Source of the DNA: Holophaga sp.
Lineage (GTDB): Bacteria > Acidobacteriota > Holophagae > Holophagales > Holophagaceae
DNA length: 8,340 bases
Direction: 5' to 3'
NCBI GenBank assembly: GCA_031292735.1
Contig: JARLGP010000298.1
Span: 1-8,340 of the forward strand
Shown: in pieces, positions 7,422 through 8,340 of the stretch
How positions within the stretch are numbered: the stretch's first letter is position 1
Layout: each line of letters begins with the position of its first letter
The notes under the pieces: model-generated
The model's database searches: none
The model's input: only the letters and a program-made list of their open reading frames with translations
What the model was told of the DNA's origin: nothing
Translations under genes and position numbers: made by a program

Positions 7422-7450
7422 TTGACAAAATTCAAGGGGCATTTTAAAAA
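7422..7450 (+). promoter_or_regulatory. Sigma70-type promoter of the ilvB leader
   Basis: TTGACA (7422-7427) is a consensus -35 box, followed by a 17-base spacer and TAAAAA (7445-7450), which matches TATAAT at four of six positions. The region is AT-rich in contrast with its surroundings. The expected transcription start, about seven bases after the -10 box, falls at about 7457, which is the A of the first ATG of the leader ORF. Confidence 0.65.
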
Positions 7451-7456
7451 TAGGGT

Positions 7457-7600
7457 ATGTCGTTTCCGCACCAGCACCCCGCTCCCATGGTTGGCCTCGC
7501 CAACATGGCCGAGTTGCGCTCGCTGCGGATCAGCTCCCTGCTGGTAACCGTACTGGGTCTTGTGGTCCTTATTATTGGCCACGGGGCGGGGGTAACTTAG
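7457..7600 (+). CDS. ilvB leader peptide (branched-chain amino acid attenuator)
   Basis: A 47-codon ORF ending in TAG at 7598-7600. Its C-terminal half holds LLVTVLGLVVLII (residues 28-40; codons 7538-7576), in which 11 of 13 codons specify Leu, Val or Ile. It lies between a promoter and an intrinsic terminator upstream of ilvB, so it is almost certainly a regulatory leader peptide like IlvL or IvbL of enterobacteria, whose translation reports charged tRNA levels. In-frame ATGs at 7487 and 7505 would give 37 or 31 residues; the 31-residue form (starting MAELRSLRIS) is close in length and layout to E. coli IlvL. None of the three starts has a recognisable Shine-Dalgarno. The first is chosen because the promoter predicts transcription to begin on that ATG, consistent with leaderless translation. 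The function of the peptide itself is probably nil. Confidence 0.8.
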   Translation: MSFPHQHPAPMVGLANMAELRSLRISSLLVTVLGLVVLIIGHGAGVT

Positions 7601-7629
7601 GCAGATGACCTGAACCACCCACCGCCCCG
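7559..7629 (+). promoter_or_regulatory. Attenuator 1:2 hairpin and antiterminator
   Basis: Segment 1 (7559-7567, the Leu-Val-Val codons CTTGTGGTC) can pair with segment 2 (7577-7585, GGCCACGGG) in a 9-bp stem including three G-U pairs. Segment 2 can instead pair through CGGGGCGG (7582-7589) with CCGCCCCG (7622-7629), a perfect 8-bp antiterminator that uses most of the 5' arm of the terminator. Inferred mechanism: a ribosome stalled on the Leu/Val codons covers segment 1, frees segment 2 and allows ilvB expression. A ribosome that reaches the stop at 7598 covers segment 2 and lets the terminator form. The pairings were drawn by eye, without energy calculation. Confidence 0.65.
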
Positions 7630-7660
7630 CACCCCAAAGGTTGCGGGGCTTTTTATTTAT
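7624..7660 (+). terminator. Intrinsic terminator (attenuator) before ilvB
   Basis: GCCCCGCA (7624-7631) and TGCGGGGC (7642-7649) form a perfect 8-bp stem with a 10-base loop, which may add two C-G pairs. It is followed at once by TTTTTATTTAT (7650-7660). On the other strand there is no T-run, so it acts in the ilvB direction only. It lies 24 bases after the leader stop codon and about 100 bases before ilvB. Confidence 0.9.
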
Positions 7661-7763
7661 ACCGAACCGGCGAGGAACCGGCCCACTCCATCCCGAACCT
7701 CTTGCAACCCAATCCCCATGACCTGTCCATCAGGCCACAGGATTCTTTTATCGGAAAATAGCC

Positions 7764-8340
7764 TTGGAACAGTCTGGTGCAGCGCTTCTTTGGGAATGTC
7801 TTCAACGGGAAGGGGTCGAGGTGGTGTTCGGCTACCCGGGCGGCGCCATCCTGCCGGTGTACAACGCCATGGTGAACTCCCCCGTGCGCCACGTGCTGGC
7901 CCGCCACGAGCAGGGCGCGGCGCATATGGCGGACGGCTACGCCCGGGCCTCGGGCCGGGTGGGCGTGGTGCTGTGCACCTCCGGCCCCGGCGCCACCAAC
8001 CTGGTGACCGGCCTGGCCACGGCCATGATGGATTCGGTGCCGATGGTGGCCATCACCGGCCAGGTGTCCTCCAGCCTGCTGGGCTCGGACGCCTTCCAGG
8101 AGGTGGACGTCACCGGCGTGACCCTGCCCATCACCAAGCACAACTACCTGGTGCAGCGTCCCGAGCAGATCGCCCCGGCCATCCGCGAGGCCTTCGCCCT
8201 GGCCCAGAGCGGCCGGCCCGGCCCGGTGCTGGTGGACATCACCAAGGACGCCCAGGTGGCCACCGCCACCCTGGAATGGGATCAGGCCGCGCCCACCCGG
8301 CACCTGCGCCACCTGGCTCCGGAAGTTCCCCAGGCCCAGC
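7764..8340 (+). CDS. ilvB: Acetolactate synthase large subunit (partial, N-terminal 192 residues)
   Basis: The N-terminal, pyrimidine-binding part of acetohydroxyacid synthase, the thiamine-diphosphate enzyme that condenses pyruvate with pyruvate or 2-oxobutyrate at the first common step of valine, leucine and isoleucine synthesis. Visible blocks: VVFGYPGGAILPVYN (20-34), RHEQGAAHMADGYARASG (47-64) with the catalytic Glu49, CTSGPGATNLVTG (71-83), AITGQVSSSLLGSDAFQE (96-113) and SGRPGPVLVDITKD. The gene runs off the window; full-length members have about 560-600 residues. The start is TTG at 7764, giving LEQSGAALLWECLQREGVE, which aligns with the usual N-terminus. GGAAA lies six bases upstream as a weak Shine-Dalgarno. 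No ATG or GTG occurs between the upstream in-frame stop at 7719-7721 and residue 20. The small subunit gene ilvN, if present, would lie beyond the window. Expression is expected to be controlled by the leader attenuator. Confidence 0.95.
   Translation, partial: MEQSGAALLWECLQREGVEVVFGYPGGAILPVYNAMVNSPVRHVLARHEQGAAHMADGYARASGRVGVVLCTSGPGATNLVTGLATAMMDSVPMVAITGQVSSSLLGSDAFQEVDVTGVTLPITKHNYLVQRPEQIAPAIREAFALAQSGRPGPVLVDITKDAQVATATLEWDQAAPTRHLRHLAPEVPQAQ

What the first reader, a model, noticed from the sequence alone, without database searches (positions are those of the whole stretch)
7422..7764. Complete leader-peptide transcription attenuator upstream of ilvB
Seen directly: a TTGACA-17-TAAAAA promoter, a short ORF with 11 of 13 Leu/Val/Ile codons (7538-7576), a strong intrinsic terminator (7624-7660), then ilvB. 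Four segments pair in mutually exclusive ways: 1:2 (7559-7567 with 7577-7585), 2:3 (7582-7589 with 7622-7629) and 3:4 (7624-7631 with 7642-7649). Segment 1 lies within the control codons and segment 2 runs up to just before the stop codon, as the ribosome-stalling model requires. This is the architecture known from E. coli ilvGMEDA and ilvBN. The regulatory role here is inferred from position and pairing.
Basis: partly seen in the sequence, partly recalled or inferred. Interest (0 to 1): 0.8.

Follow-up and report, generated by a model that had tools for sequence, protein, structure and literature searches.

The report
Leaderless leader-peptide attenuator before ilvB
Just before a gene for making leucine, valine and isoleucine lies what looks like an RNA switch that stops reading of the gene when these amino acids are plentiful; this kind of switch is long known, but here it sits in the soil-bacterium phylum Acidobacteriota, its tiny signal gene apparently starts at the very first base of the RNA, and related bacteria carry similar switches before several other amino-acid genes.

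Summary
Promoter, leader ORF with 11 of 13 Leu/Val/Ile codons, antiterminator and terminator precede ilvB in a Holophagales-like Acidobacteriota genome. 2000 shuffles do not reach the run; 6 of its 11 Leu/Val/Ile codons are rare here. Helix 1:2 covaries across 11 leaders.

Related leader-terminator units stand before ilvD, ilvB, lysR-ilvA, ilvE and ilvA in other Holophagae; Thr-run leaders stand before thrB and aspartate kinase, and a Tyr-Tyr-Trp-Phe leader before DAHP synthase (families: 73, 74). This pathway matching is the strongest evidence for ribosome-mediated attenuation.

The mechanism is classical; leaderless versions are published (Streptomyces, Corynebacterium, Sinorhizobium). New, within what I could search, are the Acidobacteriota set and near-identical units heading different operons. 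Against: no transcript data; 104 of 110 relatives' ilvB regions sampled gave no leader; equilibrium folding switches clearly in only 3 of 9 leaders.

The parts
7422..7427 (+). -35 element TTGACA
   Evidence: TTGAC lies 33-43 nt before an in-frame leader ATG in 35 of 58 distinct leaders
7445..7450 (+). -10 element TAAAAA (4 of 6 consensus positions)
   Evidence: 17-nt spacing, 6 nt before ATG 7457
7457..7600 (+). leader peptide ORF, 47 codons plus TAG: MSFPHQHPAPMVGLANMAELRSLRISSLLVTVLGLVVLIIGHGAGVT; predicted leaderless (ATG at about +1)
   Evidence: start inferred from promoter spacing and from relatives (L268, L270 also 35 nt; L120, L121 first ATG 6 nt after TAACTT); in-frame ATGs at 7487 and 7505 are alternatives
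7538..7576 (+). control codons, 11 of 13 Leu/Val/Ile, 6 of the 11 rare (GTA, CTT, ATT)
7559..7567 (+). segment 1, pairs with 7577-7585 (protector hairpin 1:2)
   Evidence: covariation
7576..7602 (+). segment 2 (antiterminator 5' strand; core 7583-7593)
7608..7634 (+). segment 3 (antiterminator 3' strand; core 7617-7620 and 7622-7628), overlaps the terminator 5' arm
7624..7656 (+). intrinsic terminator 3:4 (stem 7624-7649, then TTTTTAT)
7764..8340 (+). ilvB, acetolactate synthase large subunit, TTG start, cut by the end of the window
5641..7317 (-). ilvD, dihydroxy-acid dehydratase, divergent neighbour (arrangement shared with L120 and L121)

Best explanation
It is a ribosome-mediated transcription attenuator of ilvB, most likely with an essentially leaderless leader peptide. 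RNA polymerase starts at about ATG 7457 and a ribosome loads on the 5'-terminal AUG and follows it. If charged Leu or Val tRNA is scarce the ribosome stalls in 7538-7570; segment 2 stays free, pairs with segment 3 as soon as that is made, and the polymerase reads on into ilvB. If amino acids suffice the ribosome reaches the stop codon, covers segment 2, segment 3 pairs with segment 4 and transcription ends near 7656. If the leader is not translated, 1:2 plus 3:4 form. Shown here: the sequence elements, their conservation, covariation of 1:2, and codon runs that match the pathway of the following gene. Inferred: transcription start, translation, stalling and termination in the cell. The confidence given is for attenuation by the leader peptide whatever its start codon; for the start at ATG 7457 I would say about 0.8.
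For: Run beyond chance; rare codons. 1:2: 74.7% of cells paired against 27-48% in slid versions, covariation score and cells paired reached by 0 of 500 shuffles. 2:3: 77.7% against 45-58% slid; 3:4: 85.5% against 36-52%. Terminator begins 22-35 nt after the leader stop in 27 of 28 leaders examined, none found in L079 (some of the 28 had been picked for having a terminator). Units before lysR-ilvA, ilvE, ilvD, ilvB and ilvA; Thr runs before thrB (L253, L302) and aspartate kinase (L289), FHTYYWF before DAHP synthase (L305): gene products pass the curated cut-offs TIGR01124, TIGR01122, TIGR00191, TIGR00657, TIGR00034. Just before segment 4 is made the RNA folds at -19.5 to -36.4 kcal/mol with the ribosome on control codons and at 0 to -3.4 with it at the stop, in 5 of 5 leaders tried. 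Window at equilibrium: terminator probability 0.88 with the ribosome at the stop, 0.18-0.60 at codons -48 to -30. Leaderless: TTGAC 33-43 nt before an in-frame ATG in 35 of 58 distinct leaders; SD-like match of 4 or more in 8 of those 35 against 39 of 48 downstream starts.
Against: No transcript, ribosome or reporter data. At equilibrium 3 of 9 leaders switch clearly (window, L248, L249), L120 partly (down to 0.39), L219 a little (0.68), and L245, L121, L254, L028 not (0.88 or more); in L248 the terminator has probability 0.00 without a ribosome, against the expected default termination. A kinetic argument is therefore needed. In 1:2 the number of pairs changed on both sides (5 of 9) was reached by 50 of 500 shuffles, and the sequences are related. 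2:3 shows little covariation (score reached by 44 of 500 shuffles and exceeded by some slid versions) and L120/L121 pair in another register. A ribosome on the last two Ile codons would cover segment 2 if its edge lies 13 nt beyond the A site, not if 9 nt, so control by those Ile codons is doubtful. 104 of 110 relatives' ilvB regions sampled gave no leader. L120 and L121 have no TTGAC at the matching distance.
Confidence: 0.93

Rival explanations
1. The ORF codes a small membrane-spanning protein that is useful in itself, and the hairpin is only its terminator.
For: LLVTVLGLVVLII looks hydrophobic enough for a membrane helix (by eye, no prediction run); the ORF lies between a promoter and a terminator.
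Against: N-terminal parts differ freely between relatives while the residue run and the RNA-forming 3' end persist; Thr runs and an aromatic run stand before Thr and aromatic genes, which a membrane helix does not explain; segment 2 pairs with the terminator arm.
Confidence: 0.03
2. A sub-variant of the best explanation: the attenuator is real but translation starts at ATG 7487 or 7505 (or a longer 5' UTR exists), so the mRNA is not leaderless.
For: Three in-frame ATGs exist in the window; 8 of 35 leaders with TTGAC have an SD-like match of 4 or more; 23 of 58 distinct leaders, among them the ilvA leaders, have no TTGAC at 33-43 nt.
Against: ATG 7457 sits 35 nt from the first base of TTGACA, as in L268 and L270; I see no SD before 7487 or 7505 (by eye); in L120 and L121 the first ATG lies 6 nt after TAACTT.
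Confidence: 0.2
3. A ligand-, tRNA- or protein-sensing leader (riboswitch, T-box) rather than one that senses translation of a peptide.
For: Terminator/antiterminator pairs are common to these classes.
Against: No Rfam match in 7422-7764 up to E = 1; the three matches listed lie elsewhere and are far below gathering. Pathway-matched codon runs have no role in such models.
Confidence: 0.02

Closest known systems
Enterobacterial ilvL (ilvGMEDA) and ivbL (ilvBN) attenuators (recalled, no call)
   Same: Short ORF rich in Leu/Val/Ile codons, segments 1-4, terminator before the first gene; same operating logic.
   Different: No sequence relation tested beyond the Rfam scan, which found none; the ORF here appears leaderless and ends in a Gly-Ala-Gly-like stretch whose codons form segment 2.
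Leaderless IlvL/ilvBNC attenuators of Actinobacteria (Streptomyces lividans PMC8079986; Corynebacterium glutamicum PMC11857589; passages read)
   Same: Leader peptide start at, or one nucleotide from, the transcription start; branched-chain codons; ilvB-type operon.
   Different: Different phylum; the peptide here is 47 rather than 13 or 15 residues long.
Leaderless trpL of Sinorhizobium meliloti (PMC7298713, passages read)
   Same: Attenuator RNA that begins with the leader peptide's ATG.
   Different: Trp specificity; 14-aa peptide with functions in trans, for which nothing is known here.

Membership tests
Ribosome-mediated leader-peptide attenuator of branched-chain amino acid genes | Short ORF with a run of codons for the product amino acids | tested here: met
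   11 of 13 Leu/Val/Ile; reached in 0 of 2000 shuffles
Ribosome-mediated leader-peptide attenuator of branched-chain amino acid genes | Intrinsic terminator between the ORF and the cognate gene | tested here: met
   7624-7656, -20.1 kcal/mol
Ribosome-mediated leader-peptide attenuator of branched-chain amino acid genes | Antiterminator exclusive with the terminator and coverable by a ribosome at the stop codon | tested here: met
   for the window; conserved with little covariation
Ribosome-mediated leader-peptide attenuator of branched-chain amino acid genes | Protector hairpin 1:2 | tested here: met
   present and covarying
Ribosome-mediated leader-peptide attenuator of branched-chain amino acid genes | Termination falls on starvation and depends on leader translation | not testable with these tools
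   needs cells or in vitro transcription and translation
Leaderless attenuator | Leader ATG at a distance from the promoter that puts it at about +1 | tested here: met
   35 nt from the first base of TTGACA to ATG; 35 of 58 distinct leaders at 33-43 nt
Leaderless attenuator | Mapped 5' end at the start codon | not testable with these tools
   no transcript data
T-box or riboswitch | Match to a curated RNA family | tested here: not met
   no match in the region at E up to 1

The most novel reading that the evidence does not exclude
Holophagae (Acidobacteriota) control several amino-acid pathways by a family of mostly leaderless attenuators in which one homologous unit has been copied or moved as a module between different operon heads (ilvB, ilvD, lysR-ilvA, ilvE, a conserved 60-codon ORF), while codon runs were retuned for Thr and aromatic pathways.
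Probability: 0.5. Interest if true: 0.5.

Novelty: new member of a known kind. Interest (0 to 1): 0.4.

Why it matters
[quoted passage not shown] This region gives a concrete, testable attenuator in Acidobacteriota and a covariance model that finds further ones. It adds this phylum, and by promoter spacing a few Myxococcota leaders, to the groups where the attenuator peptide seems to be read from a leaderless or nearly leaderless mRNA, which could bring the first ribosome onto the RNA as soon as its 5' end emerges (inference). Near-identical units before different operons would let one study how attenuators move or duplicate.

Tried and rejected
Rfam search of the window: no relevant match. 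No whole genome is held for the window. The first homologue search with IlvB (capped list, best 80 of 581) returned other groups and no named Holophagales; the host group became clear from IlvD, 85% identical to Mesoterricola silvestris. My first idea that every relative's ilvB would carry the leader was wrong: 7 of 111 regions including the window, 1 of 111 reverse-complement controls.

Counts: 28 leaders picked by hand or by the filters, plus 41 model-hit loci from which I dropped nine by hand (L287, L293, L294, L298, L299, L300, L303 without a convincing leader; L292 and L296, short Ile-containing ORFs before ilvA-like starts), giving 60 rows; two duplicates (L280 = L253, L277 = L097) were removed, giving 58. 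Many of the 58 are close relatives, so they are not independent. Where an ORF has several in-frame ATGs, any of them could score. L252 and L257 were set aside as unrelated. Model hits in Vicinamibacteria (4 of 149 genomes) and Myxococcota (12 of 188) were not added: of those I read, L308 and L312 are L028 and L061 again, L313 and L315 are new leaders (L315 before a TPP enzyme of ilvB type; L313 before an ilvB-like start by eye), L314 is leader-like with an unidentified next gene, L310 has a short ORF before an ilvB-like start, L311, L318, L321, L323 are unconvincing, and L316, L319, L324 have no ORF; L309, L317, L320, L322 were not read.

The rule for downstream starts picks a wrong start in the window (ATG 7718 instead of TTG 7764), so the SD comparison is rough; leaders without TTGAC also mostly lack an SD (5 of 23 with a match of 4 or more). 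Structure prediction and fold search were not used.

Full report
What is there. The stretch between the divergent genes ilvD (5641-7317, minus strand) and ilvB (from TTG 7764) holds, in order, a TTGACA-17-TAAAAA promoter, a 47-codon ORF that ends at TAG 7598-7600, and a terminator hairpin with a T-run (7624-7656). Within the ORF, 11 of 13 successive codons (7538-7576) specify Leu, Val or Ile; 2000 dinucleotide shuffles of the 446-nt region, six frames each, reach 10 at most (7 times). Six of these 11 codons (GTA, GTA, CTT, CTT, ATT, ATT) are used at under 10% in the window's six long ORFs; drawing codons for the same residues by that usage reached six rare ones in 0 of 20000 trials.

Host. IlvD is 85% identical to that of Mesoterricola silvestris (P0031) and 80% to a Holophaga sp. 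protein (P0081), so the window comes from a Holophagales-like member of Acidobacteriota. Its own genome is not held.

The pairings. The best duplex of segment 2 with segment 3 is longer than reported, 7576-7602 with 7608-7634 at -32.5 kcal/mol; segment 2 includes the stop codon, and segment 3 overlaps the 5' arm of the -20.1 kcal/mol terminator by about 10 nt. In an equilibrium model of the window the terminator has probability 0.88 with the ribosome at the stop, 0.18-0.60 with its A site at codons -48 to -30 relative to the stop, and 0.71 with no ribosome. Stalling at the last two Ile codons again gives 0.88 if the ribosome's edge lies 13 nt beyond the A site, but 0.20-0.33 if 9 nt; Val and Leu codons are therefore the likelier sensors (inference). 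Of nine leaders modelled, three switch clearly (window, L248, L249), L120 in part, L219 slightly, and L245, L121, L254, L028 do not; L248 has terminator probability 0.00 without a ribosome. The RNA made just before segment 4, however, folds at -19.5 to -36.4 kcal/mol in the 5 leaders tried (window, L245, L121, L254, L028) when the ribosome is on the control codons, and at 0 to -3.4 when it is at the stop. The argument is thus kinetic, and it is inference.

Relatives' ilvB. Six of 110 sampled Acidobacteriota ilvB upstream regions, and the window, show a Leu/Val/Ile-rich ORF followed by a terminator, against 1 of 111 reverse-complement controls (the 110 come from the capped list). Two of them, L106 and L107 (= L120, L121 seen from ilvD), share the divergent ilvD/ilvB arrangement with the window. 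Many others have ilvB close behind ilvD or a leuB-like gene (by eye).

Units before other genes. A DNA search with window 7410-7900 in the 93 held genomes of the class showed that the leader's 3' half matches, at 74-80% over 82-98 nt, six places that are not ilvB (G440, G441, G442, G108, and two matches in G444 at different places). Read out, these are leaders plus terminators before lysR-ilvA (L245-L247), ilvE followed by lysR and ilvA (L248), and a conserved 60-codon ORF (L249, L251). Shorter matches (30-38 nt) of the same search led to a second unit before that small ORF (L250), to ilvD (L254, L256), and to Thr-run leaders before thrB (L253) and a LysR gene (L255). Family search: L245 IlvA (TIGR01124, 753 bits, cut-off 411), L248 IlvE (TIGR01122, 251, cut-off 246), L253 ThrB (TIGR00191, 203, cut-off 168); the small ORF of L249 matches nothing; L245's and L255's regulators are LysR-type but reach no specific cut-off among those shown.

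Alignment and model. On alignment A1 (11 leaders) helix 1:2 covaries: 74.7% of cells paired against 27-48% slid, score reached by 0 of 500 shuffles; 5 of 9 pairs change on both sides, a count that 50 of 500 shuffles reach. 2:3 is conserved (77.7% against 45-58%) with little covariation. 3:4 is nearly invariant (85.5% against 36-52%). A covariance model R1 with the 3:4 structure matches 50 of 93 class genomes at E <= 0.01; the weak end includes false matches. Sixteen genomes have a match at E <= 3e-6 directly before ilvD (places; one, G169, is in the model's alignment); 11 of these 16 leaders end in (I/M)ISGEVG plus two residues. Other matches stand before ilvB (G117; G350 and G326, both in the alignment; G446, a TPP enzyme), thrB (G436 and G126, families tested; G437 by eye), aspartate kinase (G444; G443, AA_kinase plus ACT domains; G440, G441 by eye; for example IMTTTTTGTHPGAGTA), ilvA (G177, MSHAGSTLIIAAIAIIPSREGA, TIGR01124 796 bits; others by eye), and one FHTYYWF leader before DAHP synthase (G076, L305; model E = 0.002; TIGR00034, 457 bits, cut-off 173). 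Codon runs that follow the pathway of the next gene are what peptide-sensing attenuation predicts.

Leaderless start. ATG 7457 lies 35 nt from the first base of TTGACA and 6 nt after the -10 hexamer, so transcription should begin at or very near it. Of 58 distinct leader ORFs (selection told in Tried and rejected; many are close relatives), 35 have TTGAC 33-43 nt before an in-frame ATG. The 60 rows hold 59 TTGAC in 32,090 positions, of which 37 are these; from the other 22, by my arithmetic, chance gives about one leader. The remaining 23 include L120 and L121, where TAACTT lies 6 nt before the first ATG, and the ilvA leaders, which have no TTGAC at that distance. SD-like matches of 4 or more bases precede 8 of those 35 leaders, 5 of the other 23, and 39 of 48 downstream starts chosen by a rough rule. 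In L028, L048, L062 (Acidobacteriota) and L061 (Sorangium) TTGAC lies at 42 nt, a 5' UTR of only a few bases.

What is known. Leaderless attenuator peptides are published for Streptomyces lividans (PMC8079986), Corynebacterium glutamicum ilvBNC, whose transcript starts one nucleotide from the leader's start codon (PMC11857589), and Sinorhizobium meliloti trpL (PMC7298713); I read passages of each. PMC13236596 (passages) describes an ilvB1 attenuator with a translated leader ORF in Mycobacterium tuberculosis. For Acidobacteria, PMC2965389 (passages) says that predicted attenuators had almost no associated functions, and PMC4833913 (passages) reports only a peak of leader-gene frequency near structural genes. 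Searches with Acidobacteria, attenuation and leader peptide terms and general ones listed, by title, abstract start and the passages named, no paper on such a system in that phylum; most subscription papers are outside the library, among them Lopatovskaya et al. 2010, seen only as a reference.

Verdict. The finding is correct and the mechanism ordinary: a new member of a known kind. What goes beyond it is the likely leaderless start, the set in Holophagae with pathway-matched codon runs, and near-identical units at the head of different operons, which suggests that the unit has been copied or moved.

Noticed in passing
L249, L250, L251 (L249:1028-1207): A conserved ORF of about 60 codons ending ..W(N/S)FRLLV* directly follows a branched-chain attenuator in three places; in L249 the next gene lies on the other strand. 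It matches no NCBIfam or Pfam family.
   Followed up: partly
L245-L248: A LysR-type regulator gene stands with ilvA behind the attenuator, so the attenuator may control a regulator as well as enzymes.
   Followed up: partly
window 5641-7317; Holophagae carry at least two ilvD lineages about 45-47% identical to each other in these searches; the window's is the one near Mesoterricola silvestris, while the leader-headed ilvD-ilvB operons carry the other.
   Followed up: partly
window 637-1860: PLP-dependent aminotransferase that scores best against the MocR-like regulator PdxR, below its cut-off, and matches that profile only from position 90 on, so it lacks the N-terminal part.
   Followed up: no
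window 4925-5644: 239-aa ORF with no Pfam or NCBIfam match.
   Followed up: no
L081 (viral contigs IMGVR_UViG_642979342_000007): A contig filed as viral carries an ilvB-like gene behind a Leu/Val/Ile leader (..VISLVVISVVVIIIPPCGAALGRGKA*) and terminator; it may be a bacterial contig or an auxiliary gene.
   Followed up: no
L034, L061, L081, L245-L251, L253: Attenuator terminators in different groups share a similar hairpin, GCACC-N(4-6)-GGTC, with a bulged base in several (by eye); shared origin or shared constraint not settled.
   Followed up: no
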